A stretch of 64,000 nt of DNA from NCBI GenBank assembly GCA_013076295.1, contig RQOL01000718.1, positions 5,579,623 through 5,643,622 of the forward strand, given 5' to 3'. Under the pieces are notes generated by a model. That model had not been told where the DNA came from. It saw only the letters and a list, made by a program, of their open reading frames with translations, and did no database searches. Position 1 is the stretch's first letter. Every line of letters begins with the position of its first letter. Of the stretch, positions 4,547 to 33,017 are shown piece after piece. The DNA comes from Sanderia malayensis (lineage: Eukaryota; Cnidaria; Scyphozoa; Semaeostomeae; Pelagiidae). Made by a program: the position numbers and the translations under genes.

Positions 4547-4552
4547 GTGCAG
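4547..4552. repeat. Target-site duplication, left (GTGCAG)
   Basis: The hexamer GTGCAG directly precedes the left terminus TATGGTAGGCC. The same hexamer follows the right terminus at 10161-10166. Removing the insert and one copy rejoins the split KDZ exon in frame. Confidence 0.9.
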
Positions 4553-4719
4553 TATGGTAGGCCGAATGGTGCAAAATTCAAGAAAATAAAATTGCACTAC
4601 AATTCAATAGCTATTTTCAACGTCAAGAATTAAGTTTAACACCAAGGGTAGAATTTTCAATAAAATCAACGAATGACACCACAATCAAGATAAATCACTC
4701 TCAACTTCAACAAGAAAAC

Positions 4720-4925
4720 ACTTCAACTTCAAGGAAACACTTCAACTTCAAGGGTACATTTCAACTTCAAGGGTAGAATTCAACTTCAAGTGTAGAATTC
4801 AGCTTCAAGGGTACAATTCACATTCAAGGGCACCATTCAACTTCAGGGGCACAATTCACATTCAAGGGTACAATTCAGCTTCAAGGGTACAATTCAATGT
4901 CAACAAACATTTTTCAGTGTCAACA
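4720..4925 (+). repeat. Subterminal minisatellite inside the left TIR
   Basis: About nine tandem units of roughly 19 bp built on TTCAACTTCAAGGGTACAA, followed by three CAACAAA-containing units. The right TIR carries the same unit inverted at about 9890-10012 with about six copies. Tandem subterminal motifs of this kind often bind the transposase; that role here is inference. Confidence 0.75.
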
Positions 4926-4970
4926 AACGTTTTACATTGTCAACAAATCCCATGATGCCATGTTCCTTGT

Positions 4971-4979
4971 TTTTGGCGC
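4971..4979 (+). promoter_or_regulatory. E2F-like motif at inner edge of left TIR
   Basis: TTTTGGCGC lies 33 bp upstream of the first possible integrase ATG (5012). The mirror-image TIR has the full palindrome TTTTGGCGCCAAAA. The E2F consensus is TTTSSCGC; binding is inferred from sequence only. Confidence 0.4.
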
Positions 4980-5011
4980 TACAATTTAGGTTAAAATGGA
5001 CACTAGCTTTA

Positions 5012-6492
5012 ATGATGGCGGAGCAAGATTGGGGGAATTTCTTTCAATCACTCATACAAGCGCTTGATGAGGCAGAGAATGCTACCACTGAGCAGCAAAG
5101 AGAAGTAGCAGGTCTGCACTTAGAGCATGCAGTTAGTGTTTTGCAGCACGTGATCTCACTTGTGCCAGGAGAAAGTGAATCTGGGCAAGTCCTCGCGACA
5201 ATTTTGAGAAATTTTCGGCTGCTCTTAGCCGGCTGGAGAAATGCATCTTCTGATCGTTGCTCCAATGTTGCAATTTACTCGCTTGATGTACCTCCGTTGG
5301 TTCAAAGTGTACATGCTGGTAGGCCAAAATTTGAGATAAGCGAAGAGGTCCTTTTGCAGTTGAGATCTATAGGATTTACATGGTCGCAAATAGCCGAGAT
5401 GTTGCTCGTTTCTCGTTGGACAATCAGAAGAAGAGTAGTCGAATTTGGTTTGCAAGACGTTACCGGTTACTCCCATATATCAGATGAAGAGCTAGATGCA
5501 AAGGTTAGTCAGTTTATGCAGCGACATGGCACACTGGTTGGCTATTCAATCATCAGTGGGCATTTGAAATCACTTGGCTTGAGGGTACAACGCCGGAGGG
5601 TCAGAGCAAGTATTGTTCGTGTGGATCCAAGTAGTTCCAGGTTGAGGTGGTCTGTTGTTGTTTTTCGGCGGCGATATTCGGTTGCAGGCCCGAATAGTCT
5701 ATGGCATGCAGATGGTCATCATAGCCTAGTCACATGGGGATTCGTTATTCATGGAGCAATAGATGGCTTTTCCAGATTCATTGTTTACCTTGAATGCTCA
5801 ACTAACAATAAAAGTGATACTGTCACCGAATTGTTTTTGGAAGCCACTCGAAATTTTGGATGGCCATCCCGAGTTAGAACTGATAAAGGGGGAGAGAACG
5901 TTGGCATCTGGGCAATGATGGAGGAGTTTAGAGGAGAAAACAGGGGGAGCTACTTAGCTGGATCCTCAGTGCACAACCAGCGCATTGAGCGCTTGTGGCG
6001 TGATGTTTTTTGCATGGTGTGCCACCTTTTTTACTATACTTTCCAATCAATGGAAGAGTCTGGGGTCTTGAACATAAGTGATGAGATTCACAAATTCATT
6101 CTCCATTTTGTCTTCCGTCCGAGAATAAACATAGCTCTGAACAGTTTTGTTGCATCTTGGAACAATCATCCCGCACAGCTCGCAACTGGTCGCCCCACCG
6201 AATTTGGGTGAATGGAGTCTTGGACATTCGAAATCATGAAAATGTTGGTGTTTCTGACATTGTTGAGTCGTCCTCAGGTGAAGTAGAGTGGTATGGATAT
6301 GATCCACGCGCACCCGCGCCAAATGATGACGGACTTTCATCGGTTGAAGTACTGGATGCTGACCCCAACCTCCCAGATCATATCTTGGAACAGTTAAGAA
6401 CTGAGATTGACCCATGTGAAAACTCAGACAGTTTCGGAATTGATATTTATTTGAGAGCTTTAAATATTGTAGAATCATCCCTAGCTCACTAA
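5012..6492 (+). CDS. Integrase-type (DD34E) transposase, frameshifted near 3' end
   Basis: Rve-type integrase that would cut and join the transposon ends. The likely start is the double ATG at 5012/5015 (MMAEQDWGNFF), just inside the inverted repeat. The N-terminal 100 residues are helical with no recognised domain. A helix-turn-helix follows (FTWSQIAEMLLVSRWTIRRR, near 5370-5430), then the catalytic core: first Asp in LWHADGHHS (about 5700), second Asp in VRTDKGGEN (about 5875), Glu in NQRIERLWRDV (about 5980), with 34 residues between the second Asp and the Glu. The frame is open to a TGA at 6209-6211. Similarity to related proteins appears to continue in another frame from about 6175 (NWSPHRIWVNG) to a stop at 6490-6492, so a 1-base shift near 6175-6200 probably removes the native C-terminus. 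The gene converges with the HECT gene. No intron is needed. Confidence 0.85.
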
Positions 6493-6512
6493 CAATAAAC
6501 AGGATACCTTAA

Positions 6513-6701
6513 AGGCAGAAATTTTCGCGATTACAAGTTTCCAAAAACTCTGTTTTTGAAAATCGCGAAAATAAAAACTGCGAAATTGTCATTTTTATGC
6601 CTTTTTATCAATTTCAATATTGAATATTTTCAAAAATGAAAACCACGCAAAATTCCAATATTTCGAGCCGCGAAATTAAAGACACGCGAAAATTTCTGCC
6701 T
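6513..6701. mobile_element. MITE with TTAA target duplication, nested in copy 1
   Basis: A 189-bp element with matching inverted ends AGGCAGAAATTTTCGCG, flanked by TTAA at 6509-6512 and 6702-6705. TTAA duplication is typical of the piggyBac and Kolobok superfamilies; the AGG start suits Kolobok better, but with no coding sequence this is uncertain. The interior has further TTTTCGCGA-type repeats. Confidence 0.75.
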
Positions 6702-7219
6702 TTAAGGTAAGTTTGGAATGAGATAAACATTCGTCGATGCATTTTGCCAAATCACATGTCGTTGACAGCAAACTGAACTGTAATCTAAATAACAAAACAC
6801 GTTTTCTAAGCAACAAGTAACTGAACTAAAAAGCTTGCTCTACAAAGATATAAAATTTCAGCCACGTAAGTTCCAAACCACCTTATTATGCGCAATTACG
6901 GGTTTGACTTAATCATGGAATAACTTTTAAAAACTCCTCTAAAAATCACCTCAAATCTAGTATGGCCTTCATTACTCATGCCTCAATTTTAACAATCCAA
7001 AATCTATGATTTCTTTATTTTTGTATATTGCTTAAAAAGCTTGCATTATCAGTCCTCAAAATTGATAAAAATTAAATGATTGATCTTCCTTTAGGTTCCA
7101 CCCCTAATTTTGCTTAATAAGTTAGAAATTTCTGTTACTCAGAAATTTCGAAATATCTTAAGAACCTTGAAACAAAAGATTATAAATGTAAGCATGAAAT
7201 AAAGTGAGCTCAAGAAATG

Positions 7220-9763
7220 TTATGCTGTATTGTACGCTTTGCCTTTCATCACTGCAATCATGCTGCTTTCAAAGTGCAAGTAGTCATCAAAGCTGACAGG
7301 AATCTTCAAATCAAGTGTGCATGTGGAAGCATATATAGCATCCACATTTCCAATGTGAACTGATATAGAACCAGGCACAAACACAGAGGTGCAAGAGCTT
7401 GAACCTGTTACATAGCATAAAAAATTGGCCAGTGTTTGTTCAGAAGCATTCTCAATAAATAAAAATAGCCATCCCTGCACTTGACGTATTTGGCGGTCTT
7501 CAGAAAATTCAAGCTTTAGTAACTGTTTCACATAATTTGCAGACACAGCATCATCTTGGTGTATGAAAAAATGCACAAATTTACTTGGAGCAGCTTCTAC
7601 TTCCTTGAGTAAACCAAGGATCTTTAATCCATTTCTGAATTGGTCGAGAATTGCTTTATGCTTTATAATTGTGTCATGCAGGACAAGGCACTGAACAACT
7701 TCTTCTTTATTCTTTTCCTGAAAGAAAATATTATTTAGGTGGTGAATTTCTATTAAAATACAGGCTTTGTGCCGATTAAAACCTGTTTTCTTTTTACACT
7801 CTTAAAAAATTCTTGTTTAAAGGGCAGGATTTAATGTTTCCAAAAATTATGCAACAGCTGTGGCACATACATTTAGTTTTCTTGTTTGTCCACACTCCTG
7901 CATGAATCTCAAGAAGCTCTCATCTTCAGAAATCTCCACAAGATCATTGGCACCACCATCCTTGATCTGAAAACAATGTAAACAATAATTACTATGATGG
8001 TTCCTTACTAAGATGACTACTATTATGTGAATAGATACAGCCAACAATGTACAATACTAATGTGAAATCCATGAATTTTTCATATTTGCATACATCATCA
8101 AAAGAAAAGAGTAACAATTATTCAGATACCTAAATTCAGATTCAGAATGAGATTCTGATACAGAGGTATCGATACAGGAATACTACTATTATGGTTCCTG
8201 CTTCTCTTAAGGGGTCCTTTCAAAAGAAAAAGTTTAGCTTGCAACAAGCTTCACATACCCTTTCAAGAAATGCAGCCAGCTCAATATCCCCGACATCAAT
8301 AAATGAGGATCTTCCAACGGCTTGACTGAGGTCACCAGTAGCGATGTACCAAAATATTCCAGGGGCAAGGTAAGGAAAACCTGGCCCACCCTGCACTAAA
8401 CTGTGAGCAATCATCTTTCCAAGAACTTCAAAAATGCCTGTCAGTACATGTTCACTGCTATAAATTGGTGTGAGTCTTGCATTTTGGCCACGAAACAATC
8501 TAAGGTATCCTTCCCCTTCTGCAATTTGTGCAAAGACATCAGAGAATGATTGGCGTAATACACCTCCAGTGTCAACAGCTGGCTCTCCCCTTATTTGCAA
8601 CTTTATTTGAAGGCATGGGTCAAAATCTGGACTCTTGTAGATGGAAAATAAATCCATGAGTAGGTCTTCTTTGTCCAGCTTTACTTTCTCTGCACATATG
8701 TATGGTTTCATGGTTTTCTTCAGCCTCTGCAAAATCTGGCATGCATCCTCTCATCTTTCCCTACAAAACTATCATGTCTCACAGAGCTCCTAGGCTCACT
8801 TAAAAAATTGGCAGCTGCCTCTAGATCTTGATGAACAATCAAAGATTCTCGTAACAGTTCTGTTCTTGTGTTGGGAAAAATGGTGGACAGTGATTGTAAG
8901 CCATCTTGGAAAAATGAAGACTCTTCAACACATGTGGATCCAGATGCAGTCATACTTGTTCCTGGCTGGGGCTCTTCTGTACTTGTTCCTGGTTTGGGTT
9001 CTTCTGCACTTGCTCCTGGTTTTGCTGCTCTTACATTTGATGGCTGCACATCTTCATGGTGGGCTCTTTCCATCTCCTCATCATCACTGAGACTAACCAG
9101 TGTATGTTTTGGGACATTCAGCCTGACATATAATCTTCCATTTCCACAAAGATGTTTGATATGTTTAAAATCCCATTTATGGTCATCCTTTACTACAGGC
9201 AATGAAATAGTATTTCTTTCTCTTTTTACAAAATCAAAGTCCCGTTGGTTAATCTGGGGCAGCTTTGTACTGAACAAGGAAGCCAACTCAGCTCGAATAT
9301 CATCTTCAGTAAAATCAGATGATAAGTCAAACTGTCCTTTCAACACAACCATCTCGTCAACTACAGTGTAATCTTGATCTTGAGGCTGCTCAGTCTCGTC
9401 GAGAAGATAGACACTCTTGGGTATAACTTGTGCTTTGGAAGCTGCCTTTCCCCTTTTCTTGAAGCGGAAATTATGCCCAGGGAGACTGACGTTCGTTCTC
9501 TTCAGTCCTGGCGATGTTGCAGTTTGCAGGTTGCTGCTTGTGATCGGCATAACATTTAGGCCTACAATCGAGCTTGGCCTAGGCGGATTTGTTGAATGCT
9601 GTTCCGCCAAATTCCTCGACACAGCTGTGGCAGATGAGGCGATGAGCTGCCTTGTCCTCTGTATCAAATTGCTTTGCTGCCCTTGAGCCGAAGACGACCT
9701 TCTTAACTCCTCTCTGACACACTGTCGCACGCATTCCTCCAAACTTCTTCGGTCGGCCATCAT
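7220..9763 (-). CDS. Transposon-borne HECT E3 ubiquitin ligase with CUE-like segment
   Basis: Predicted ubiquitin ligase resembling proteins named G2/M phase-specific E3 ligase-like (G2E3 type). The likely start is the double ATG at 9763/9760 (MMADRRSLEEC). Exons read 9763-8259, 7966-7871 and 7717-7220, with GTATGT donors at 8258 and 7870 and CAG acceptors. Domains in order: low-complexity N-terminus; a domain (about 9360-9090) also seen in the second copy; PGTS-rich linker; CUE-like ubiquitin-binding segment (LQSLSTIFPNTRTELLRESL, near 8900-8800); then HECT with GEPAVDTGGVLRQSF in the N-lobe and the active-site Cys in ASTCTLDLKIP (near 7315). A 1-base frameshift near 8735 separates the N-terminal part from the HECT part, so this copy is probably defective or holds a sequence error. 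The catalytic half is otherwise uninterrupted. The role in transposition is unknown. Confidence 0.85.
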
Positions 9764-9803
9764 CGCAGCATCAGAGTTAACTGTTAACTTGAGGCGTGGC
9801 AAC

Positions 9804-9817
9804 TTTTGGCGCCAAAA
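9804..9817 (-). promoter_or_regulatory. E2F-type palindrome at inner edge of right TIR
   Basis: The perfect palindrome TTTTGGCGCCAAAA lies about 40 bp upstream of the HECT start codon (9763). It matches the classic E2F site. The outer half is part of the inverted repeat and recurs upstream of the integrase gene. Confidence 0.45.
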
Positions 9818-10160
9818 AAAAGGAACATGGCATCATGGGATTTGTTGACAATGAAAAACGTTTGTTGACACTGAAATATGTTTGTTGACATTGAATTGTG
9901 CCCTTGAAGTTGAATTGTACCCTTGAAGTTGAATTGTACCCTTGAATGTGAATTGTTCCCTTGAAGTCGAAATGTAAACCTTGAAGTTGAAGTGTTTCCT
10001 TGTTGAAGTTGAGAGTGATTTATCTTGATTGTGGTGTCATTCGTTGATTTTATTGAAAATTCTACCCTTGGTGTTAAACTTAATTCTTGACGTTGAAAAT
10101 AGCTATTAAATTGTAGTGCAATTTTATTTTCTTGAATTTTGCACCATTCGGCCTACCATA
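9809..10160 (-). repeat. Right terminal inverted repeat of copy 1
   Basis: Reverse complement of 4553-4979, with fewer internal 19-bp units. It ends at ...GGCCTACCATA, directly before the GTGCAG duplication. Confidence 0.85.
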
Positions 10161-10375
10161 GTGCAGATAGTTACAGATTGTCTAATTATGCGGCTTATGT
10201 TAACATAAACAGCCAAATTAATGAGCAGCAGAACGCAAAGTTGAAGAAGATGAAAGGCCAGCTGAGCTATATGAGTCCCGAAAATTTTGTGAACCATTGT
10301 CGTCTTTTGCTGGGCTTTTGTAACAGAAAACTAAAATCAGAAACAAATAGACAAGTGGAAAATGTGATTGGTTAA
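10161..10375 (+). pseudogene. KDZ-type transposase relic, 3' portion
   Basis: Continuation of the KDZ reading frame beyond the inserted transposon. It opens with the right GTGCAG duplication, which restores the codons for ADSYRLSNY. It then shows NSQINEQQNAKLK, holding the third catalytic residue (Glu of the DDE triad), and MSPENFVNHCRLLLGFCNRKL, typical of the KDZ C-terminal region. The frame ends at TAA 10373-10375. This segment joins to the exon beginning at 4544, whose first three bases are left of the insertion. Confidence 0.75.
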
Positions 10376-14187: not shown

Positions 14188-17100
14188 CTACTCAAAGTCA
14201 TCGTCCTCATCTTGTGCAAAACAAAAGCGAATACCTCTGGAGCCAGACAAAATCTGCACATTTTGCTTCTCTTTTCCAACCCATACTTTAAAACACACGG
14301 CAAAGAATAAGCAAGGCGTTTTACGTTTTCCAATACTACCACTCCCTATAATTATGGAAAATACAAGTGCTGCTGATACTCTTAAACATTTCATATTGTT
14401 ATCATGTTGAATATTTGCTGTCATGTTTACCTTAAATGCAGCAATCTGTAAAGGAGGTCGATTTATGGTTGAAATAACGTGCATAGTTTACAACGTAGCG
14501 ACTTAAAACTCACCACACTCTCATCTTCCAGTAGCCAAAAAAAGTTCATCATATCTGACGACAGATAACAGGCCTTGTCAAAGTCCACGATACGCTTTCT
14601 TTTGGATCCAATTCTTTCACTCCAAATCTGTGTTACAAACTTCTAAAACAAAGAAAGACGTTATACTTCAATATTAATTGAAGTATATGAAAGTAATCTT
14701 CTTTTATGAGTAAAAAAAACTATTATGCCATAGTTTCCAAAACATCGAAATGATTTCAGCGTGAAAACGTCTACTGCCACGTAATAAAAACATGCACGTG
14801 TAGGCAGACTTTTTCCACAAATATTACCTTTATCTCTCTACTCCAACGTCGAAACATGTAGTTAATGTCATCAATGTTTTTAAACTTATCTGAACTAAAA
14901 AAAACAGGCATTTCAAAACAGAATTATGATACAGGGTCAGTTTTCAAGTAAACTGATTTAAATTGGCCCAATTTGGTGGTAAACGAACCTTCCCGGATAA
15001 AATTAATAGAAAATTTACAACATCCTATCCTTACTTTTTCAGCTCTTCAAAACTTGTTTTGCATCCGCAACTCCAGCCACTTAACTCACTGCCAAGCGCT
15101 TCTTTCACACAAATTTCATGAAAATGCTTTTCACAATCGCAACATTTTGTACCGGGCGAGTCAACATTTTTAACCAAATTATACCCACCAGCAAGACAAA
15201 CACAACAGCTCTCTCCTGCACTACATTGCTTCCCCCACATGCACAAACGTTCCTTACTTTCTCTACCCTGATTCAAATTGATGCAATCTGCAACAAAGTC
15301 CAACAATATGAAACGAACATCTTCTTCCAGCAATATCTTCACTAAGCTTTCATCAATACCTATAAAAACATGCATTATATTTCATTCAGCCTGAGCTCTT
15401 CTTTAATTGAGATCAATAATCACAAATAATATAGTAATGATTGCACAATAAAAGTATTTAATAGTTGGTAATATACATATTCATATTATACTTAACACAT
15501 ACATTACACATACTGTCTAATATTACTATTCTGCGGAGGTCACGTGATGACGCACTTTCTTGCCAAAAACAATAGATTCGACCCAAAACAATAGGTCGAA
15601 CGCCAAGAAACAATGGGCCGAAACGACGAACCGTGTAATCACAAAGGCTTTTTTGTATGTGGGTAAATGGCAATGAAATTCACACTGAATGCTTAGTTTC
15701 ATAATTTAACCAGGGTAATGGATTTTGTTTTTCGATTTTCTCCCAAATTATTGAATTATTCCATTAATTATTCTGCTAATTGTGCTATCACGAAAAAACT
15801 AGGGTTTACGCTGGCGAAACTTCCAAACTCGCGTCGTGAACTCCATTTTCGAACAGAGTATTCGCTGTTCATCTGACCCGTTTCGCCTTTTGCTGTAATT
15901 TGATTGGCTCTTTCGCGACTTCACGTGAACAGTCACGCGTATTTCGTTATCATGCAAATTTGCCCTCGGCTTGAACAGCAGGTACTTTTGGAGAAGACGC
16001 GTGTTTTTGTTTTCATCACAAAGGATAACTCGGCGCCTTTCAAAGTGTTTTGCGACCTGAATTATCTTTGTAAAGACTTGCTAATTGTTTGAGAGACCTC
16101 TGGAAAATTACAGGAAACAATTGAGAACACAGGTGATAGCTTTGTTTTGTTTTTTGGGTGAGATAGTTGTAGTTTAGATAGTACACGACCGCCATTGTTG
16201 CTTCGGCATGCTTGCGATGCTTAGGCCTAATGTAAGCAAGCCCAAAGTTTTAATAATCAAATTATGATAAGGGGTTATCAGGCGAGCGCAGCGAGCCAAA
16301 CTGTTGTAAGAGAAGTAGGCAGAGGCACGAGCGTAGGCGAATGCAGCGCACGAAGTGCGCCCTATCAATCAATGTTTCTTGATAATAGATAGACAGGCAA
16401 GCGCAGCGAGCTAACCCATTGTACGTGGGGTTGAAAGAGGCATGAGCGAAGCGAATGCAGCGCACGAAGTGCGCCCTATTAATCAATGTTTCTTGATAAT
16501 AGACAGACAGGCGAGCGCAGCGAGCTTACCCATTGTACGTGGGGTTGAAAGGGGCATGAGCGTAAGCGAATGCAGCGCACGAAGTGCGCCCCATCAGTCA
16601 ATGTTTCTTGATAATAGATAGACAGGCGAGCGCAGCGAGCTAAACCATTGTACGTGGGGTTGAAAGAGGCATGAGCGAAGCGAACGCAGCGCACGAAGTG
16701 CGCCCTATTAGTCAGTGTTTCTTGATAATACATAGATAGGCGAGCGCAACGAGCTAACCCATTGTACGTGGGGTTGAAAGAGGCATGAGCGAAGCGAATG
16801 CAGCCCACGAAGTGCGCCCTATCAGTCAATGTTTCTTGATAATAGATAGACAGGCGAGCGCAGCGAGCTATCCCATTGTACGTGGGGTTGAAAGAGGCAT
16901 GAGCGAAGCGAATGCAGCACACGAAGTGCGCCCTATCAGTCAATGTTTCTTGATAATAGATAGACAGGCGAGCACAGCGAGCTAACCCATTGTACGTGGG
17001 GTTGAAAGGGGCATGAGCGTAAGCGAATGCAGCGCACGAAGTGCGCCCCATCAGTCAATGTTTCTTGATAATAGATAGATAGGCGAGCGTAGCGAGCTAA

Positions 17101-17990
17101 CCCATTGTACGTGGGGTTGAAAGAGGCATGAGCGAAGCGAATGCAGCGCACAAAGTGCGCCCTATCAGTCAACGTTTCTTGATAATAGATAGACAGGCGA
17201 GCACAGCGAGCTAACCCATTGTACGTCGGGTTGAAAGAGGCATGAGCAAAGCGAATGCAGCGCACGAAGTGCGCCAACCAGATGAAGCTTCTTTTACTTG
17301 ACGGGCTGGGGCGAAGGAGCGAAGCGAGTGATGACCCCTAGTATATACTATTCCGATAGAATAGCAATCAACCATTTTTAATTGGGTTAGAAAAATTATA
17401 ACTCATGTTTAAAGGATTACCTAATATTTACGCCTTAATCAAGAACAATATTCAAAGCTCACCTTTCACCCTTGTCTCTGTTTGCTGTCCCAGTTCATCT
17501 TGTGTATTTTTTGACATTTGAACAGCTTTCCGTTTCATACCATCGGTAACAACATCAAAAAATTTCTTCATTATCATCTCATCATTCCCAAATGCACTAA
17601 ACTCCTTTGGACCTGAAAAACAAAAGCTTTGCTTAACCATATAGAACCTGACTTCTCATAAAAATATTTCAATGTAGCTAGAAGAAACAAATACCTGAAT
17701 ACTTCACACAAATCTGTCCTTCTTTCAACTTCAATAATGTCAGTGCTATACTTGGCGTATTTCTTTTTTCATACCATTTTGTGAGCTGAAAAAGATGTAT
17801 TATGTCAAGTAATAGCGTATTCCTCCTAAAAGTGTTTCTATTCTGAAACAGAGAAGATCTTTTCCATCATGAGAATGCTCACCATATTATTCAACGACTT
17901 CACTTTTGACTTATCAAGTTGATTACAAACTTTTTTGCGTGTTTCAAACAGACCATTCCTTCTTTTTCGCTAAAATTAAATTCCACAGTG
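14188..17990 (-). CDS. Multi-exon gene with PHD/RING-like cysteine cluster (3' part)
   Basis: A series of minus-strand exons with clean GT..AG borders and no stops: about 17990-17885, 17788-17697, 17614-17463, 15362-15036, 14893-14829, 14643-14522 and 14453-14439, with a terminal exon to 14188. The 15362-15036 exon carries a Cys/His cluster (CCVCLAGG, CCDCEKHFHEIC, WSCGCKTS) that looks like a PHD or variant RING finger. The final residues FCFAQDEDDDFE give an acidic tail; the acceptor used for this last exon is uncertain (aaag or gaaaagag near 14290). The long intron 17462-15363 is explained by a mini-Helitron insertion (15516-17341). Family unknown; chromatin or ubiquitin function is suggested only by the finger. 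Exon integrity makes this one of the few plausibly functional host genes here. Its 5' end is unresolved and may lie upstream near 19149, 23160 or even 49927. Confidence 0.55.
15516..17341 (+). mobile_element. Non-autonomous Helitron, copy A
   Basis: Starts TCTAATATTACTATTCTGCG and ends GATGACCCCTAG followed by T, matching the Helitron rule of 5' TC and 3' CTRR. The left half is a unique body shared with the copies at 23373, 34698 and 48338 and with the 5'-truncated copy near 20765. The right half is a tandem array. It lies within an intron of the minus-strand finger gene. The preceding base is G and not the usual A, unlike copies C and D. Confidence 0.75.
16268..17279 (+). repeat. Hairpin-forming minisatellite in Helitron copy A
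   Basis: About nine units of roughly 115 bp. Each begins GCGAGCGCAGCGAGC, then CCCATTGTACGTGGGGTTG, GCATGAGCGAAGCGAATGC and GCGCACGAAGTGCGC. The last motif is a perfect 6-bp stem with a GAA loop. Long open frames across the array are artefacts of a unit length compatible with triplets. Shorter arrays of related units (about 89 bp) occur in the other copies. Confidence 0.85.
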
Positions 17991-18733
17991 TCAAGTTCAA
18001 GGCAATATGAAAAACAGCATAGCAACTTTTATCTCACAGTTCTGTTCATTCAGTTTTTAAAAAAATTGTAACCCAAGTATCAAATGTAGCCCTTAACAAA
18101 AACATTGGATTTGTGTGAAATCAATGTTTTGGTGTTCTTCAGACCAAATATTCAAAGATTACAACACATGTCATGTATAAATCCAATAATCAAGATTGAC
18201 TGAAGTATGACATTTATTTAAATTCACACAAAGACAACATGGTGGTAAGCTGAAATGTTACAAATCAAGACAATTGTATCATAAGTGCAATAACAAAAAT
18301 AATAGTACTAACAATAAAACAAGAGTTTTATACAGGAATAAGATATCAGTATGACAACCATACTGTTATTGTTAGGGCTCTGTACTAAAAGAAAAGGAAT
18401 ATACAATGTAAGTGGAGTAAAATTAAGCAAAGCTCATATTTAAATACATTTATATAACAATCAAATTGTATGTCCAAACAAAATTCTGTATTTCATTAAA
18501 CTAAGTCAGCCCCAAGAAGTACATCCTGTTTTGTCATATTTATTATTATCTTAACAAACCATCACCCAAAGCTATATCAATTGCACCCAATCAGATGTCT
18601 TTACACCTTTTAATGTTAACACATACACACATGCTTACATGTAAATATATTTGTCTATATATATCTGATATATCTAGAGTGCTGTCTTCACCAGCATAGA
18701 GCGCTCTATGTACAAAGTAAAGTACAGAGTCTT

Positions 18734-18881
18734 GATAGCAGAATCATAGAAAAGGAAGACAGATTCTCTGTTACTCTGAGGTTCGTGCGAAAGCACTCGC
18801 CAGAGAGACTATAACTGATATACACAAAACTCAGAGTAACAGAGAACAATCGGTCTTTTCCTTTTCTGTGATTCTGCTATC
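18734..18881. repeat. Long imperfect inverted repeat
   Basis: Arms 18734-18780 and 18830-18881 (outer end GATAGCAGAATCA) are near-complements over about 47 bases around a 49-base spacer. They are flanked by AT microsatellite on the right. Probably the end structure of a mobile element, perhaps Penelope-like; the family is not certain. The stretch 18000-18730 to its left holds no gene that I can support. Confidence 0.65.
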
Positions 18882-18990
18882 TTTATATTATATATATATA
18901 GGCAACGTAATGTAGGCAACCAAAGTAAATGAAACAGCCACAATAATTGGTTAGGGTCTGGTTTTTTAAGGTGGGCATGGCAGATTCAAA

Positions 18991-19149
18991 TATTCACGTG
19001 CTTGTATTGCATGGTTCATTTAAGGTTTTCTTTGTCACAACAACTTCAATTTCTTCATTCCCGCTCCCAAACTCAGCTTCTACGCCACTCTCATGTACAG
19101 AAACGTTTGGAGAACCATCGTTTTCATAACTTGCATTCTGCAACTCCAT
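18991..19149 (-). CDS. Possible first coding exon, acidic N-terminus
   Basis: An ATG at 19149 opens 52 codons (MELQNASYENDGSPN...) rich in Glu, Ser and Val, stopping at 18991. Composition is protein-like, and it lies upstream, in the same direction, of the finger gene ending at 14188, so it could be an early exon. No splice donor was firmly identified. Low confidence. Confidence 0.25.
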
Positions 19150-19560
19150 CTTTCTTCAAATTCTAATAAAAGCCAATATACAAAATAATCGCAAAAAATA
19201 AAATCTTGAACTGCAGTGCAGAGGACCTCTCTTTGATCTGCTGCGGCTGCCTGCCATCAAATAACCTGCCAAAAACTCCCGCCCACAGCTTCTGACAGCC
19301 ACGTTTTCAAGATCCAGCCTCTTACTTACTACAATCCTCGCCATAAGGTGTGAGACAGTTAAAAAATTTCACATATGTCCCGAAAAAAACAGACCCCACT
19401 CCCCCTATTCAGTGTTCTGTATGTTTAGAAAGTTTTTTTTTGCACTCCCTGATAAACCTGTCCATCAAGAATAGCAACATTGCTTTGGGGGGAGGGGGAT
19501 GGCTCTGTATTTTCCTGCATGTCTCAAGACCTTTTGCCAATGATTGTCTTTGGTGAAAAT

Positions 19561-20762
19561 TCCTAAATATAAGGCCAGCATGCCCGATTTTATCTACTGT
19601 GGGTAATTTCAACCTGCTAAGCTCGAATATGGTGCTCAAAATGGTGTAACTAATGTCGATTAGCTTTTGTGACGTCATACATTTTGAAAACGAGGCTGCT
19701 TCTCTGTGAGTACATTATTGCGTTCAAAAAGGTCTGTTAGGCATTTGTGTTTATAGATAATATACAATTGAGCTTGAACAAGTCACATCATAACTTTTTT
19801 CTATTCTCGTCTGTGTTCAGATACAAAATTGATGCCACACATATGTTTAAAATTAAAGTACTCCAGCAAATTTCAGCGCTGCGCCAAGCTTGTGGGATAA
19901 AGTAAGAATGCATAATTTCTCCATCTCTTCCCCATCCTGATGTTTCTCTTGACTACACACCCGATGAGCCACAGTCACGCCGGATTCGTTTGAGTAAAAG
20001 CCTCCGCAACAGACTTTCCAAATGATTTCCTGCTGGGAAACTTCGTCAAATCTGCCCTACTGTACGTTATTAGATACCTATTGCGCAAAACCTTGAATTT
20101 CAATCCGAAATCACCGTGATCCATTAAAAAAAACAGTTGCAACGCACACAAATTATTTGGCTGTTCTGAGAAATGCAAGTTTTGTTTGAGAGAACATGCA
20201 CTGATGGAGTGCCAAGGTCATAAACAAACAGACAGTGGAATATCACCCCTGTTGAGCATGACAGTTTAATTTTAGAATCCTAATGTCATTTCAATCAGTG
20301 ACACATACTAAACGTCCATAACGTGGAACCACCCACCATGTTGAATACTTGGAATCCTGGCAACAATGCACGGTTAACGGCATATTGTTATAAATATTAT
20401 CACTAATATTTTAAAATAATTGCCGTTAACCGTGTTAATCGTTAAATTTAGTACTGAATAACTATAGACCATGGTGTTATCCGTCCGTTAATCGTCCGTT
20501 AACCGTGTGTTATTCGTTGGCCAGACTAATTGTTTTGTCTATTTTCCACTTTGGTATTCTGTTCATAGTTTCAATGATTCTATCCTGAAACTCCTGCTTT
20601 GACAATCTCGTATTATTGTGTTGCACAGCATCTTTTTGTAACTGTTTTCGTCACAAAAGCTAATCAACATTAGTTACACCATTTTGAGCACCAGATTCGA
20701 ACTCAGCAGGTTGAAATTGCCCACAGTAGATAAAATCGGGCATGCTTGCCTTATATTTAGGA
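19561..20762. mobile_element. 1.2 kb inverted-repeat element without coding capacity
   Basis: Arms 19561-19673 and 20649-20762 are inverted copies (outer end TCCTAAATATAAGG) with few mismatches over about 113 bp. The interior has no recognisable protein but includes mirrored CCGTTAACCG motifs near 20390-20510. Superfamily unknown. The right arm directly abuts a mini-Helitron terminus. Confidence 0.65.
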
Positions 20763-21815
20763 ACTATCCGGGGGCGCTCGTGAACGCTCGCTTCCCGGAG
20801 GGGGGCAAGTGAAAAAACTTAACATGGTTGGCACACTTCGTGCACTGCATTCGCTGACACTCATGCCCCTTTCAACCCCACGTAAAATGGGTTAGCTCGC
20901 TGCGCTCGCCTGTGGTTGGCGCACTTCGTGCGCTGCATTCGCTCACGCTCATGCCCCTTTCAACCCCACGTAAAATGGGTTAGCTCGCTGCGCTCGCCTG
21001 TGGTTGGCGCACTTCGTGTGCTGCATTCGCTCACGCTCATGCCCCTTTCAACCCCACTTACAATGGGTTAGCACGCTGCGCTCGCCTGTGGTTGGCGCAC
21101 TTCGTGCGCTGCATTCGCTTACGCTCATGCCCCATTCAATCCCACTTACAATGGATTAGCTCGCTGTGCTCGCCTGTCTGTCTGTTATCAAGAAACCATG
21201 ACTGAAAGGGCGCACTTCGTGCGCTGCATTCGCTACCGCTCATGCCTCTGGCTACTCCTCTTACAATAGTTTGGCTCGCTCCGCTCGCCTCATAATCGCG
21301 TATCATAATTTGTTTTTAAAACTTTGAGTTTGTTTACATTAGGCCTAAGCGTCACAGTATGCTGAAGCAACAATGGCGGTCGTACAAAAACTAAAACTAT
21401 CTCACTGAAAAAACAAAACAAAACTATCACCTGTGTTCTCAATTGTCTCCTGCAATTTTCCAGAGGTCTCTCAAACAATTAGCAAGGCTTTACAAAGATA
21501 ATTCAGGTCGTAAAACACTTTGAAAGGCACCCAGTTATCCTTTGTGTTGAAAACAAAAACACGCGTCTTCTCCAAAAGTACCTGCTGTTCAACCCGAGGG
21601 CTAATTTGCATGATAACGAAAAACGCGTGACTTTTCACGTGAAGTCACGAAAGAGCCAATCAAATTGCAGCAAAAGGCGAAACGCGTCACGGGAAGAGCG
21701 AACGCTTTCTTCGAAATTGGAGTTCGTGACGCGAATTTGGAAGTTTCGCCAGCGTAAACCGTCGTTTTTTCGTGATAGCACAATTAGTGGGACAATTAAT
21801 GGAATAACTCAAAAA
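20763..21815 (-). mobile_element. Non-autonomous Helitron, 5'-truncated copy E
   Basis: Reverse-strand copy of the same family. A GC-rich 3' end with a degenerate terminal motif (GATAG in place of CTAG) lies at about 20763. Four to five minisatellite units run from about 20830 to 21290. The shared body reaches about 21815, where similarity to copy A stops before its TC terminus. Confidence 0.65.
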
Positions 21816-21939
21816 TTCTTTTAAAAAAGGCTTCCAAAATGTCTCAAGACCTTTTGTCAATGATTGTAGAATCTTTGCGAAAAAAATGGTTGGTAAAGTG
21901 CTTAAAAAAAGGATGTTTCATAGCTCCGCCTCCGGCTAG

Positions 21940-22798
21940 TTACAGTCAACTCTGCTTAATTCGAACAGCCAGGGGCAGCTTGAAAAGGTTCGAATTAAAA
22001 AAGTTCGAATTATAGAGATTTGTTCTATAAGAGTTGGTTCATGTTGCAACGGAATCAAAAGTCTTAAAAGGAACAAAAAAGTTCAAAACCTTGCTTCTCT
22101 CTCGCTAGCAAAGAAAATAGATGAAATTTGAGACTCGATTGAGAAATGCAAACAGTACCTGCAGTTGAGTTGGCAGTGTTGGGTGTCTTGGGAAAATTGT
22201 GTTTTCTTTTTCTCGGCCAAGAATTCAACAACCGCCAAATCATAACCGACCCAAACTATAACATTGAGATCCCCCAAAAAAGATATCTCATATTAATCCC
22301 CAGCAAGGAAACCTCCTCTGACATCCAACAACGAGACAACAAGCCTCAGCAATTGCGATGAATAATGGAATGGTGGAACGATAAATAACAGGGGACAGCA
22401 ATCTAAAACATATAATAACCTTCTATGAAGAATAAATTCTTCCTCCGATGAACTATATGCCTCTGCTAAATCTTGAAGCACTGCAACATGATAATGATAA
22501 GTCATTACAATTTTAATTTAAAAAAAATATATGGATAGTCAGTAGAAAATATTTAAAAAACATTTGAAAAATATTCTATAGATCATGTTATAAGTGTATA
22601 ACTCTTCACGAGAGCCAATGCAAATGCTTTGCTGCATAAAAATTAGCACCAGTGACATAAATTTCCGTTTACAAAGAAATGAAATAAAACATTCACATAC
22701 GTTGGCTGTACTTTCCATGCCCCTTTTTTGGCGTTTCCCTTTTGGCTCAGGTATTAATGACCTAGGGGCGAACGAGAGAAGCAAGTGATGACCCCTAG
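21940..22798 (+). mobile_element. Helitron-like unit 1 of a head-to-tail pair
   Basis: Begins TTACAGTCAACTC right after a CTAG at 21936-21939 and ends GAAGCAAGTGATGACCCCTAG. Its first 225 bp repeat the start of the next unit. The interior contains candidate minus-strand exon fragments (22488-22425, acceptor TTGCAG; and near 22277-22166). The shared 3' terminus with copy A points to a related Helitron family; the exact 5' boundary is uncertain. Confidence 0.45.
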
Positions 22799-23372
22799 TT
22801 ACAGTGAACTATGCCAAATTCGAACAGCCTGGGGAAGCGTGAAAATGTTCGAATTACGAAAAGTTTGAATTTTAGAGATTTGTTTTATAAGAGTTGGTTC
22901 ATGTTGCGATGGAATCAAAATTCTTAAAAGAAACCAAAAAGTTCAAAAACTTGCTTCTCTCTTGGTACCAAAGAAAATAGATGAAATCTGAGACTCGATT
23001 GAGAAATACAAACAGCACCTGGACTTCTATCAGTTCCTGATTCATCAATATTTCTGGTCTGGGCCACGGAATCATCAGCACCAATCAATGGCCCATGCGC
23101 GTCATCCTCCCCTCTTTCATGCAAGTCATCCTCCCCTCCTTCAGTGACACCACTAACATCAAAAAACTGATTTGTTGTATAATTGTTTTATGTTAATAGT
23201 TCACAGTTGAGCAAACTGCTCATCAAATATTATGGCAGTAGAAACTGTGGGTAAGACCAAGTTATTATTATTATTATTACTATTATTATTGCAAGTGAAG
23301 CGTGCCAACCAGATCAATCTTTTTTTACTTGACAGGCTGGGGAGAATGAGCGAAGCAAGTGATGACCTCTAG
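22799..23372 (+). mobile_element. Helitron-like unit 2 of a head-to-tail pair
   Basis: Same start (TTACAGTGAACTATGCCAAA) and same type of end (GATGACCTCTAG at 23361-23372). The next base begins another Helitron (TCTAATATT). The interior holds a minus-strand exon-like stretch at about 23160-23024 (acidic GGEDDLHERGEDDAHG) with a CAG|GTGCTG donor. Confidence 0.45.
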
Positions 23373-26970: not shown

Positions 26971-27328
26971 ATGATGACTTCAAGATCAAAGCCAATGAAA
27001 TGACTGCTTTCTTCACAAATAATCTATATCCTAATGCAATCTCTGACAACGCCCTGAGTAAAGTTAGCAATCTCTCCCAAGAGGATGCTTTGGTTCCGTC
27101 TGATCCAACAACTGTCACAACCACAGATATCTTCCCTGGTCCTCCTCTTCTTGCCTATCGCGGAGATAAAAACTTCAAAGGCACTCTTGTTAGAAATACC
27201 TTTCTGTTACACAGAACCCTGGTACTCGACCCTGTCGCCATCACCTTTGCCAAACCTGCTCACACATCAACCCAGAAACCACAATTTCCAACCATGGACA
27301 AAACTTTACCATCAACTCCGGCTTTACC

Positions 27329-27334
27329 TGTTCA
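27329..27334. repeat. Target-site duplication, left (TGTTCA)
   Basis: TGTTCA precedes the left terminus TATGCGGGCCCGAATGG and recurs at 33018-33023 after the right terminus. Joining the two flanks rebuilds the Cys-rich stretch of the Penelope-like protein. Confidence 0.9.
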
Positions 27335-27627
27335 TATGCGGGCCCGAATGGTTCACAGGTGTCCCCTATTAATAAAAGTATAATTGTGTTAAACTTTGTC
27401 ATACATAATTAATAAATTTCATTTCAGTATTCATTCTTGGCAATGCAATTAATTATCTTATTAACAAAGCATTATCATTAAAATATATATGCATCAATTA
27501 ATTGAGCATGTACTTTAACATTTAATTAAATGTATGCTTTTGAATTAATTAAATATGTACTCTTAAATTAATTAAATGTCCACTTTCGAATTAATTCTTT
27601 AGTATCCCAAGATGCAATGTAGTAGGA

Positions 27628-27640
27628 AATTGGCGCACGC
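27628..27640 (+). promoter_or_regulatory. E2F-like motif upstream of HECT gene, copy 2
   Basis: AATTGGCGCACGCC lies about 30-40 bp before the HECT start codon at 27670, in the same position as the E2F-like palindrome in copy 1. Functional binding is inferred. Confidence 0.35.
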
Positions 27641-27669
27641 CAACAGTTGCATGAGGCACATGTTTAGCA

Positions 27670-29529
27670 ATGGCTGGCGATGAAGCCCATGTCAGGCAAA
27701 TTGCCCAGCAAGCGATGCAGAATATTAGTCAGTTAATTCAAATTATTGAAGCAAGTTCATCAGCAACAAGTGGCAATTTAAGAAGTACACATATGTCTGA
27801 AGCAGGAGGTGGTGGCAGTACAATTGGCAGTAGTAGCAGGCCTAGGCCAACTACATCTGCAGCTGATACGTTTAGGCTTGAACAAAGTCAGCACCAAGAA
27901 GCCTCAGTACTAACAAATAGCAGCAATCGCTATCACCCATGTAATCGATATAGCCTAAGAAATGATAAGAATAACACGAGCAATGCTGTGACTGGGCTAA
28001 GAAGGCGATTTCCCACTGCTGGTGCTGCTGCAACAAGGCACAGACCAAGTAGGCCTCTAACAACAGGAGGAAGAGCTTCAAGAGGAAGGGCTTCAGCACT
28101 GGGTAGGCCCTTTTTTTCTGGCACTGCAACCAGAGATGTTATGATACTAAAAGCTGGGGAAGTAACTTTGCCGTCCAGAACAGAGAAGTCACAACTTGAG
28201 CTAAATGGGCGTATTATTACTGGTTTTGATGTAAACAGATCCTTGGAACAGGAGGTGTTGTTCAAGGAACTTGAAACCATTTTGCCAGATCAGTACAAGG
28301 GAATTAAATTCCAAATTATGAAGAACTGTCATGGAAGCCTTGTTCCCCCAAACATTCCACAAGGGAAAAAGATTGATGCAAAGCTGCTGCTGAAATCATT
28401 AGCACCAAGCTCTTACATTTATATCCAACTTTTACATGAACCAATACCAGATGATATTTTGGATGTACCAGCATTTGAGAAGTTTGAAGAAACTGTAAGT
28501 AGTCATGAAAACAGCAGACAAGCAAATGATAATTCAAGTGAAGATCCTTCTTATCCTTTCAATACTAATCCAGTTGGTGTTGGTGATGTGAGCGCTGAAA
28601 AACCATTTTTTATTGAGATTTTACAAATTGTACCGGCAAATCTAATGGATCCAGTTGAGATCTTGAAATACTTGCAGCAAAAAATTGTCACTGGTCGTGC
28701 ACTTGAAATTTCCTCTGTAGACACTGAGATTTTAGGGGAAACGTATTACATAACAGTTGACAGGGAAAACATCATACAGACAACATTTGATGAACTGCAG
28801 TTCATTTCCAACCCAAGATTGACATTTCAGGTGGATTTCATGGGAGAAGACTCGACAGATTTAGGTGGTCCAAGGAAGGAGTGGATACGCTTGCTTAACA
28901 GGGAAATAAAAGCAAAGTATTTTGACCATGATTTGCGACATCTTCTTTCAAAAGATTACTTCTATGTGGGGCAAATTTTTGCAATTGCTCTGTTGCAGAA
29001 TGGCCAAATTCCTTCTTTTCTCAGTGAAGCAATGCTGCAAGAATTGGTAGCAATCTCACTTTCAAATCAGTGCGTTGAAGAAATCCAAAATGGTCTTGAA
29101 ACTCTAGGAATGTGCTCAGCCTTGAAGAAGTTTCCTAAGTTGTTACACCTTATGAGAACTTCTGGAAACAGTGACAATTTAACAGTGCAGAAATTACTAC
29201 AGCTTTTCAAGCCAAAGTTTTCAGAAGAGGGATCTAACGCATTTCAGAAAGAAAAGGCTGTTTATCACTTGTATGTGAGATACCTGAGGGAAATTGCGGC
29301 AAACAGAAGAGTTTCTGGTAAAACCACAATTATTTTAGGCCATATCCTGCAATTTGCTACAGGAGCTAGTGAAGAGCCTGTGCTTGGTTTTGAGCTAGGT
29401 CCAAGCTTGGAATTTGTTATTCCGCAAGAAAAGCGTGTAGAGGATTTCCAAGCTGACTCTAGTGATGGGAACAAAACATATAAAACAATTGCAAATTTTT
29501 TACCAACCAACTTTACATACCTGCAGTAA
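27670..29529 (+). pseudogene. Transposon-borne HECT E3 ligase, copy 2, cut before the active-site Cys
   Basis: A single 619-codon frame from ATG 27670. An N-terminal Ser/Arg-rich region is followed by a domain (VNRSLEQEVLFKELETILP...YIYIQLLHEP) that resembles the N-terminal domain of copy 1. The HECT domain starts near 28600, with the N-lobe motif VDFMGEDSTDLGGPRKEW (about 28831). No CUE-like segment is seen. The frame stops at TAA 29528-29530. HECT sequence resumes in another frame at the active site TGC AGT AAC; the Cys codon begins at 29522, and a 1.58 kb insertion follows at 29531. The remaining C-lobe (SNILTLPRPT to stop 31225-31227) lies beyond the insertion. A 1-base shift near 29515-29522 is also needed, so the gene is dead in this copy. 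Confidence 0.8.
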
Positions 29530-29530
29530 C

Positions 29531-31111
29531 CATAGAGATAGGATATATACTAAACTAGAGTGCGAACGAGGCTCCGGAAAGGTGACCCTTTTCGGCCATC
29601 TTGTTGACGGGAGTTTTTGACGGGTAAAAGTACTGATTTCAATGCGTAAATGCCTATCACCATAGGCAAAACATGGATTGTTAGTATGATCCAGTAAAAT
29701 TTAAAGACTGAGAAGCAACGAATGGTAAAGGAGAGACCTTTTCACACATTTTGAACGTCTGGACATCGTGGAAGGTACAGTATTTTTGTTTCAATTTAGT
29801 ATGTAAGCTTGGAAGTAGTGGAGCGGCATGGCATGGGAGTATACAGTACCCTGTCCCATAAAAACAGAAGAGACATAAAACAAATACATAACAATTTTTA
29901 TTAATGAAAATTGGAACAGGGCAATTTTAACATACGTAATGAATTGGTTTGGTAAAATAAATCTTTTGATTATTTCATACAACCGAGAACCGACCACCAC
30001 TTGTTTTCTTTTCGAGAATAGAATCGCCCTGTTGTTGCTGCATTTGTATCTATCATATCATTCATAGCATAGAAATAAATGCTATTGACAGCTTCTAAGA
30101 GCTGTTTTGCATGCTCGATATTACTACAAGGTCGATATTCGGAATTTTTTTTTAGTATCAGCAAATTAAACTTTAGTTGTTATGATTTATTTTAGGCCCA
30201 GCGCCTTCTGGAGCAATGAGCGCCACCGCAGAGACCAGAAAGGCTTGTTTATATCGAGGAAATTACAGTAAAAACAACTGAAGTACGGTCGAAAAATGCG
30301 AGTTCTTCGCATCATGCATGGCATGAAAATCAGCAGATAAAGAACTGAAAATTGCTCAGAATGGTAAACTGGATAGCAACACAATTGCTGTTATGAAGGC
30401 TGCCTGCATGTGTGGAGCCGGAGCGGGAGGCGGGACATGAAGGACGGAATCAACAACTTAGAGCAAGGAAACATCCAGACAAAGTTAAAATAACGCAAAT
30501 TTTAGTTCAAAATAGGACACAAATCATATTTTTATTGTATTGTGTTGATTTTGTTTTCATTTTATTTCAAATATTTTTACAAAACGGATTTCTCTTTGTA
30601 TTTTTCAATTGTCTTCATATCATTTGATAGATTGGCCTAAGATCCTAAAAAAGCCTGTTGCTCTGTTCATTCTTGCTGGATTTCTGTCATTCTTGCTTCA
30701 GATCAATATAAAAATAGATTATTTTGTTCACCACCCCAATACGTTGTTATTTGTATGAGGAAAAATCAGAAAACTAAGAAACAATTTTGGCCTACGAAAA
30801 AAGTCAAGAGATTTTCAAGTACTTACAAATTGACAAATTGTAGACATTTGCAGTATTTGACAGAAATTTTAATACCATAGACAGGTTTCCACATACATAC
30901 TTATTTAGAAACTGGTAAAAACTTTGGAATTTAGTTTTCGAATCACGCTATAAGCTTTAAATTTAAACTTTAGGTGAGCTCCAGACATTGCCGTGCCTTG
31001 AATATTTTCGCAACTTCTCCCGTCAACAAGATGGCGCACAAAGTTTCAGCCTCGCTATGACCGAAACAATAGGAGTTAGCTCTCTAGTTTAGTATATATC
31101 CTATCTCTATG
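29531..31111. mobile_element. 1.58 kb element with 8-bp duplication, inserted in HECT active site
   Basis: Inverted ends CATAGAGATAGGATATATAC (left) and the matching complement (right) extend about 30 bp perfectly and then loosely to about 95 bp (CCATCTTGTTGACGGGAG). GCAGTAAC is duplicated at 29523-29530 and 31112-31119. An 8-bp duplication with CA-starting ends fits P-element or hAT types; no transposase is present, so the choice is open. The interior is AT-rich without a credible gene. Confidence 0.8.
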
Positions 31112-31227
31112 GCAGTAACATACTCACTCTACCAAGGCCCACAGTTGCACATACTCTTCCTGAAGCTGATGACTTATTTAATATGTATGACATTTGCTTT
31201 GGACAAGAATATTTTGGGATTCAATGA
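31112..31227 (+). pseudogene. HECT C-lobe fragment beyond the insertion
   Basis: Begins with the duplicated GCAGTAAC and reads SNILTLPRPTVAHTL...EYFGIQ, then TGA at 31225-31227. LTLPRP following Cys-Ser-Asn is the usual sequence after a HECT catalytic Cys. Separated from the rest of the gene by the 29531-31111 element. Confidence 0.7.
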
Positions 31228-31531
31228 ACTGAACTGTTCAATTTGATTTCAATTTCTTACAGAAAATATGTTTGCCATCATTCATTTACACTTAAAGTTT
31301 TCCTAGTTTTGTTAAGCATATTTTTTCTTGCTTAAAAATTTTATCTCAAATTTAGATAACAAGTTTGTTGTGTTGTTATGTTCAGTTGTAAAAGAAAGAA
31401 ACTTCCTTCAACTGGTTTTTTTATCAGCCTTTCTATGTCAGCAAGACCGGTATATGAGCGTCTTATTCTGAGCCCCTGGTAGCAGGTTACGTTTATGAGT
31501 TCCAGTCCTATGTTTTAATCTATTGAAAGGT

Positions 31532-32914
31532 TCATCTTTGTACAATCCTCAAACATTCATTGTATATTCCTACTCCTTGAAGGCCATCATGCTGCAGTGG
31601 ATCTGGCCAAAATTGCATTTCTTCCTCTGTTTTTTGAGCATTTGGAGCATCTAAATTTACTTGGTAATTTGTATCATCTAACAGTGGCACTGAATCTGGA
31701 TCTGGATCTATCCCAAAACTGTCAATATCTTCAATTGCAGTATGATCTGAATTTATGTTTTACAGCATGCCCTGCTGCCACATCTGCCTTGGGGATAGAT
31801 TTTTCTCTGTTGATACTGGACGATTATTCATCTGTGCTATAAATTCATCCAGTGACTTGTTGATTCGGGGTAAGAAAACATAGTGCAGGCAAAACAATTC
31901 TCTCTCATTCAGTGGGTCCAAGATGTTTTCGTGCTCCATTTTTTCGAACAATCTTGCATAAAATACCAGCACACCACATTATACATCACGATGCGTGCGT
32001 TCTACCTGACTGTTATGGACCAACGAACCAGTTATAATCCTTCCCCTGTCGGCACCTCTGTTCTCAATCATGTACAATCCCACGAGATAGTTTTCCATGC
32101 CATGATCACTTCTGACACGGGATGGCAAACCCCATCGTGAAACTCCATCCTCGAACAACGCAAGAACAGTCTCTGCCTTGTTGTTATCTTTACATTTACA
32201 GTAAATGAGCACTCTGGTTTTACCATCAATGGCTACATGAACAACGAACTTCCATCTGATTAATTTGTGGGCCGAATCTATGTGCCAAAGACTGTTTGGT
32301 GTTGGAACAAAATATTTGCGGCGGGGTATTACCAAACACCACCTTAATGCACACCCAATGGGATCCACTCTGCTTATACACTCGCTGACCCGCCAACGCT
32401 GTACCCTTATGGCACGACTTCTTAAGGCACCCATAAATCGTCGCGTGCCAAGATTTGGTGTCCCTAAGTTTCCCCCTTCTTGACTTGTCAAATTGGCATA
32501 AATTATATCAAGTTCATTGTCTGTGATGTTGCTGAACCTGCTTTCTTCCATTTCAAATTCTTTTCTCCTTCGCTTGACAGTAGAATAACTGACATTTAGT
32601 AACTCTGCTATATTCTTCCAAGAGAAGTGAATTGAGCGCAAATGTTCCAACTGGTCCCTAGTTATATCTAAGTATGGTCTGCCAAGGTTGTGGCTGCCCT
32701 CTGCATTTTGAGAACGATAAGCTTGTTGTTGATCTAACTGAAAATCTGCAGCATGTTCTCTATTAATAATTTGGGAAATAAAGTCCATCACAACAGAAAT
32801 GTCTCTCTTGAATGCAGCAATTCTTCCTCGCATTTCAACAGGTAATCCTGAAATTGGTCTGGTATTCCTGCTAAAATCTTCTATCAACAGAGTTAAGGTG
32901 GCAGAAGATTCCAA
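31532..32914 (-). pseudogene. Integrase-type (DD34E) transposase, copy 2, two in-frame stops
   Basis: Same architecture as copy 1: a helix-turn-helix (FSWKNIAELLNVSYSTVKRR, near 32620), first Asp in LWHIDSAHK (near 32280), second Asp in VRSDHGMEN (near 32105), Glu in NSQVERTHRDV (near 32000), with 34 residues between the last two. The frame is interrupted by TAA at about 31976 and another at about 31758. Coding-like sequence in the same frame (DIDSFGIDPDPDSV...) runs on to TGA at 31532. DSFGID is shared with the C-terminus of copy 1. No ATG fits the 5' end well; a short first exon with an AG acceptor near 32927 is possible. Confidence 0.8.
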
Positions 32915-33017
32915 TAAATTATCTTCTATCTGTTATTTATTAATTCTGTATGACAAAATGTAACACAATTATACTTTTATTAATAGGGGACACTTTTGAA
33001 TCATTCGGGCCTCGATA

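What the first reader, a model, noticed from the sequence alone, without database searches (positions are those of the whole stretch)
4553..10160. DNA transposon that pairs an integrase with a HECT ubiquitin ligase
Seen directly: matching inverted ends, a perfect 6-bp duplication, and between them only two convergent genes, a DD34E integrase and a HECT E3 ligase with an active-site Cys. HECT ligases are host signalling enzymes; I know of no well-described DNA transposon class that carries one as its standard second gene. A ligase could mark host repressors or the transposase itself for turnover. The superfamily label (IS3EU-like) rests on memory of its TAT ends and 6-bp duplication.
Basis: partly seen in the sequence, partly recalled or inferred. 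Interest (0 to 1): 0.9.

Follow-up and report, generated by a model that had tools for sequence, protein, structure and literature searches.

The report
Jumping gene carrying a ubiquitin ligase
This stretch is a DNA transposon of an animal, probably a jellyfish or coral relative, whose second gene is an enzyme that tags proteins with ubiquitin; most related transposon genes found in this genome lie next to such a ligase gene, so the ligase looks like a standard and old part of these elements that may act on cellular defences or on the transposase itself.

Summary
All four insertion sites found for this family carry both genes, whole or decayed. A second, strongly diverged element with the same pair lies in the same window (27335-33017). 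Genome-wide, 54 of 86 related transposase loci have a HECT gene within 7 kb in convergent orientation against 0.38 expected; reading DNA at four more shows diverged HECTs: 58 of 86. Seven contigs from elsewhere seem to carry both proteins, and the two co-diverge. Termini and duplications fit the IS3EU superfamily, whose TET/JBP-bearing fungal members also carry an alpha-kinase gene. Searches of held papers showed no HECT-transposon pair (listings). Most likely the ligase is active and helps the element evade host control, or regulates transposition; its target is unknown.

The parts
4547..4552 (.). target site duplication, left copy (GTGCAG)
4553..4987 (+). left terminal inverted repeat with internal 19-20 bp tandem units; lies just upstream of the transposase start
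5012..6211 (+). DD34E rva_4/rve transposase; frame broken near 6205 in this copy, the other frame runs on to 6492
5711..5989 (+). catalytic D (5711-5713), D (5882-5884), E (5987-5989)
7220..7717 (-). HECT gene exon 3: end of N-lobe and C-lobe; active-site Cys codon 7319-7321
   Evidence: one search printed the codon one base off; read
7871..7966 (-). HECT gene exon 2 (32 codons)
   Evidence: ends worked out by hand from the motif positions printed there
8259..9763 (-). HECT gene exon 1: N-terminal helices, basic stretch, region resembling ubiquitin-like folds, CUE-like region, start of HECT N-lobe; frame broken near 8735 in this copy
9801..10160 (-). right terminal inverted repeat; lies just upstream of the HECT start
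10161..10166 (.). target site duplication, right copy (GTGCAG)
27335..33017 (.). second, diverged element of the same kind (family B), ends TATGCGGGCC.. and ..GGCCTCGATA, TSD TGTTCA at 27329-27334 and 33018-33023
27655..29529 (+). HECT gene of the second element, cut by a nested insert; its last part is at about 31111-31227
31535..32934 (-). rva_4 transposase of the second element (open part 31982-32932)

Best explanation
It is a DNA transposon of IS3EU/GingerRoot type with two genes that meet tail to tail: a DD34E transposase and a HECT E3 ubiquitin ligase. Shown by sequence: ends, duplications, both genes, their facing order, common descent of the ligases of four families, and co-divergence of the two proteins. 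Inferred: the long inverted repeats put the same promoter in front of both genes, so both are made together; the ligase enters the nucleus (a basic stretch precedes its ubiquitin-like region), takes ubiquitin from an E2 onto its Cys and passes it to a target. I commit to the reading that the target is a host factor that silences or blocks the element (piRNA, chromatin or repair), so the ligase is a counter-defence gene, as proposed for the TET/JBP gene of fungal transposons. Estimates: two-gene element with an inherited HECT 0.95; ligase catalytically active in intact copies 0.8; target mainly a host factor 0.45.
Against: No activity, expression or target was tested. Of 86 transposase loci, 25 have no HECT hit and were not read, 1 has a HECT only in divergent position, and 2 read ones lack HECT (one truncated copy; one facing a Myb/SANT-like ORF, no inverted ends found there). 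The 86 loci are not independent: several are near-identical copies on different contigs (equal scores). 72 of 127 HECT loci have no listed transposase within 7 kb. Family C has Arg at the Cys position in the one copy read. Pfam HECT scores are low: above cut-off for A, B, D and E, below it for C and for the window copy of B. CUE was matched in 8 of 18 homologues but not in P0121 itself. HECT of D is nearer to B/C while its transposase is nearer to A, so genes may have been exchanged. dN/dS counts are small (4-9 changes each) and other pairs, which include decayed copies, give 0.46-0.82 and above 1 between two decayed copies.
Confidence: 0.6

Rival explanations
1. The ligase acts on the element's own machinery: it ubiquitinates the transposase, to limit its dose or to take the strand-transfer complex apart after integration.
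For: Pairing and co-divergence with the transposase; shared inverted repeats in front of both genes; CUE and ubiquitin-like regions could let it act on ubiquitinated complexes.
Against: Whole-protein identity is lower for HECT than for the transposase in all 55 pairs of the rounded matrices, which is less expected for a partner of a conserved protein; no interaction data.
Confidence: 0.3
2. The protein is kept for a non-catalytic role (DNA or chromatin binding, nuclear targeting, decoy), and the HECT fold is residual.
For: Cys to Arg in the family C copy; at C303:382469 (L054) no N-lobe was recognised; low Pfam scores.
Against: Cys present in 9 of 10 C-lobes printed; complete HECT fold; two relatives reach Pfam HECT 1.1e-12 and 6.4e-18.
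Confidence: 0.15
3. Host HECT exons were captured by chance in this one copy or family.
For: No such pair was seen in the literature searched.
Against: A HECT gene beside the transposase at 58 of 86 loci; close DNA of HECT exon 1 found only inside elements; pair apparently on seven contigs from elsewhere.
Confidence: 0.01
4. The element is not IS3EU proper but a sister superfamily with TA ends and 6-bp duplications.
For: No Repbase sequences could be compared; 'ubiquitin' has no occurrence in the main text of the two IS3EU papers searched, and 'HECT' none in the first.
Against: Ends TATGG..CCATA and 6-bp TSD equal those printed for IS3EU, also TAYGG..CCRTA of fungal members.
Confidence: 0.15

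Closest known systems
IS3EU / GingerRoot superfamily (PMC10045372, PMC12730594; passages seen)
   Same: TA..TA ends, terminal inverted repeats, 6-bp target duplications, DDD/E transposase of rve type; fungal members end TAYGG..CCRTA like this one
   Different: No ubiquitin ligase mentioned in the two papers (term counts); whether Repbase entries note it could not be checked
Fungal IS3EU with TET/JBP and alpha-kinase genes (PMC12730594; passages seen)
   Same: An accessory enzyme gene lies opposite the transposase; escape from silencing is proposed there for TET/JBP
   Different: Accessory enzymes are a kinase and a dioxygenase, not a HECT ligase; fungi
Fungal Entons and Intons (conference report PMC3520738; one passage seen)
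   Same: Elements said to descend from En/Spm and IS3EU and to have gained conserved extra proteins
   Different: Five to six proteins, fungi; proteins not named in the passage
Cellular HECT E3 ligases (HUWE1, UBR5, Rsp5)
   Same: Same HECT fold; active-site Cys box (recalled motif)
   Different: 12-15% identical in the rows named here; own N-terminal part; carried by a transposon
IS481EU (PMC10045372; passages seen)
   Same: Related rve-type transposase
   Different: TSDs of about 4, 15 or 25 bp and a single protein

Membership tests
IS3EU / GingerRoot | Termini TA..TA | tested here: met
   TAT..ATA in families A, B, E; definition
IS3EU / GingerRoot | 6-bp target site duplication | tested here: met
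   9 of 9 insertion sites with both ends
IS3EU / GingerRoot | Terminal inverted repeats | tested here: met
   not found at gene pairs C and D
IS3EU / GingerRoot | DDD/E rve-type transposase | tested here: met
   rva_4 and rve matches, DD34E
IS3EU / GingerRoot | No HHCC motif upstream of the core | not tested
   only HTH-like matches were seen there
IS3EU / GingerRoot | Transposase falls within IS3EU in a tree | not testable with these tools
   Repbase sequences not held
IS481EU | TSDs of about 4, 15 or 25 bp; single protein | tested here: not met
   6-bp TSDs, two genes
Ginger1 / Ginger2 | 4-bp or 4-5-bp TSD | tested here: not met
   6-bp TSDs; definition
HECT E3 ligase | HECT fold, both lobes | tested here: met
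HECT E3 ligase | Active-site Cys in the C-lobe | tested here: met
   ASTCTLDLKIP box, codon 7319-7321; motif recalled
HECT E3 ligase | Ubiquitin transfer in vitro | not testable with these tools
   needs an assay

The most novel reading that the evidence does not exclude
A whole lineage of animal DNA transposons has carried its own HECT ubiquitin ligase for so long that the ligases of its families are now barely recognisable as relatives; the ligase is a ubiquitin-based weapon against host silencing, and many proteins annotated in cnidarian genomes as 'G2/M phase-specific E3 ubiquitin-protein ligase-like' are in fact transposon genes.
Probability: 0.4. Interest if true: 0.9.

Novelty: new variant of a known kind. 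Interest (0 to 1): 0.74.

Why it matters
In the papers searched here, no animal DNA transposon is described with a ubiquitin ligase as a regular gene. If the ligase is active it gives a direct handle on how such elements escape or tune host control, comparable to the TET/JBP genes of fungal elements. It also warns annotators: some HECT genes called G2/M-phase E3 ligases in corals (for example P0125, whose Desmophyllum contig has the same length as that of transposase P0075 of the same species) are probably mobile, which matters for claims about expanded ubiquitin ligase families.

Tried and rejected

Rows dropped or limits: the whole-genome searches scored 90 of 540, 67 of 165, 64 of 211 and 63 of 248 candidate stretches, so counts are lower bounds; 93 transposase rows were merged into 86 loci, and the HECT rows into 127 loci. 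Of the 72 HECT loci without a listed transposase, one (C303:773197) does face a transposase read in L041; the others were not inspected. In the count of insertion sites I left out C577 and C688 (same site as C578), C314 (same left flank as the second window element) and C619 (one end only). The six loci read were chosen for long open transposase frames, not at random; C390 and C850 are 99% alike.

Full report

Other copies of the family. The window lies in a genome of 184,004,477 bases in 918 contigs. The first 180 bases of the element match 11 times, in six places. All six hold both genes, in three of them decayed. These three (C578, C577, C688) share one right-hand insertion site and carry a mariner-like insert (recalled label); C688 lacks the left end. 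So there are four insertion sites, each with a perfect 6-bp duplication: GTGCAG, CTTAGA, CTCTAT, AGTGGG. Close DNA of HECT exon 1 was found in these six places and nowhere else.

A second element in the window. ORFs at 27655-29529 (+) and 31982-32932 (-) are a HECT-like protein (Pfam E 0.004, below cut-off) and an rva_4 transposase (E 6.5e-43). They lie between inverted ends at 27335 and 33017 flanked by TGTTCA on both sides. The transposase is 45% identical to that of the first element over 235 residues, while the HECT proteins are not significantly alike by BLASTP (E 0.064). Two other copies of this family B, at C45 and C781 (4601 and 4608 bp; TSD AATTTC and GTTTGG), have both ORFs open (513 and 659 aa) and the HECT box LPTSHTCSN; the C45 HECT passes the Pfam cut-off (E 1.6e-9). 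The window copy is cut by a 1.58-kb insert with an 8-bp duplication.

More families. DNA similarity led to gene pairs C and D (C303), whose ends were not found, and to family E, two copies with both ends of 6276 and 5745 bp with TSDs GAATAG and GCTCAG and a truncated third copy without HECT. Each pair is convergent. D links the HECT proteins of A (BLASTP E 5e-12; hhalign probability 99, E 8.1e-18) and of B and C (E 1e-30 to 1e-43), so I take the ligase genes to be of one origin. The nine insertion sites of A, B and E that keep both ends all have perfect 6-bp duplications and HECT.

Whole-genome count. The transposase query, answered after repeated busy errors, gave 93 rows, merged into 86 loci; queries with HECT A, HECT B and one more HECT gave 76, 71 and 69 rows. 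After the first two, 45 of 86 transposase loci had a HECT within 7 kb, all 45 convergent. After the third, 54 of 86 had a convergent and 1 a divergent HECT; 2000 shifted controls gave a mean of 0.38 and at most 3. The 86 loci are not all independent (several contigs repeat one another; equal scores). Because HECTs are so diverged I read DNA downstream of six long-framed transposases unpaired (C390, C850, C824, C769, C112, C655): all six have HECT sequence (profile matches in five, best E 1.2e-5 to 2e-22; similarity E 1e-39 to the C390 HECT in the sixth; Pfam 1.1e-12, 6.4e-18 and 8.4e-7 for C390, C824 and C655, none for the C769 and C112 pieces). A seventh locus, C303:382469, has a HECT N-terminal profile match (E 8e-7) and, by eye, a box FHTC in a later ORF, between inverted repeats of 106 nt, 92%. 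Two loci read lack HECT: C619, the truncated E copy, and C616:7163711, whose facing ORF matches Myb/SANT weakly (E 6e-4, below cut-off) and where no inverted ends were found. Four of the seven were still unpaired, so the total with HECT is 58 of 86; 25 without a hit were not read, and one has the divergent HECT only.

Beyond this genome. Transposase relatives number 1974 at E <= 0.001 (best 120 listed); HECT relatives 51 and 82 in two searches. Seven contig lengths occur in both lists (8886, 17202, 85932, 365033, 889940, 1024351, 1371305); lists shifted by 1-300 give 0.39 on average (maximum 4), and 0.013 (maximum 1) for lengths over 8000, where all seven lie. One, 889940, is Desmophyllum pertusum in both lists, where the HECT protein is named a G2/M-phase specific E3 ligase. 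Over these seven pairs and families A-D the two proteins' distances correlate (r 0.93, permutation P 5e-5; without B-D r 0.81, P 0.003). The alignment to P0121 stops at the same place after exon 1 in many HECT relatives, by eye, consistent with a conserved intron, and P0122 reads through all exons on a 2681-nt contig, which suggests spliced RNA.

Relation to known systems. From passages of PMC10045372, complete IS3EU families always have TA..TA termini and usually 6-bp TSDs. From passages of PMC12730594, TET/JBP-bearing IS3EU families of Pucciniales fungi end TAYGG..CCRTA, and TET/JBP-bearing IS3EU families have that gene between transposase and alpha-kinase genes, which are oppositely oriented. 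One passage of PMC3520738 reports Entons and Intons, derived from En/Spm and IS3EU, with extra proteins. Searches that could have shown a HECT-transposon pair in print: no paper holds HECT, transposon and IS3EU together among those ranked first; none holds the terms; six, one and one papers hold those, with titles on other subjects, not read; 35 papers hold IS3EU (listing). Most subscription papers and Repbase entries are not held. I therefore call it a new variant of a known kind.

Noticed in passing
window 29531-31111: Nested element with inverted ends (38 nt, 95%) and an 8-bp duplication GCAGTAAC inside the HECT gene of the second element; the 8-bp length suggests a hAT-type element (recalled).
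   Followed up: partly
window 6505-6709: 25-nt perfect inverted repeat (TACCTTAAAGG..) between the two convergent genes; family E has a similar hairpin between its genes (L051 4744-4887, TACCTTATT..). Could be a small MITE or a shared 3' signal.
   Followed up: no
L055 (C616) 6986-7903, minus: A transposase locus of the same superfamily faces a Myb/SANT-like ORF instead of HECT, as if the second gene had been swapped; no inverted ends were found there.
   Followed up: partly
L040 (C303:864000-873000), HECT ORF: HECT box reads TPTAHTRIN: the active-site Cys position is Arg in this copy.
   Followed up: no
window 15746-24463, 34732-35631, 48568-49275: Long repeats, 77-94% alike, spread over the window in inverted orientation to one another.
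   Followed up: no
window 26011-26979: Reverse transcriptase ORF (PF00078 E 5.1e-17) close to the left end of the second element, which may have landed in or beside a retroelement.
   Followed up: no
whole genome, 127 HECT loci: 72 HECT-like loci have no listed transposase within 7 kb; they may be relics, pairs whose transposase was not scored, other transposons or host genes.
   Followed up: no
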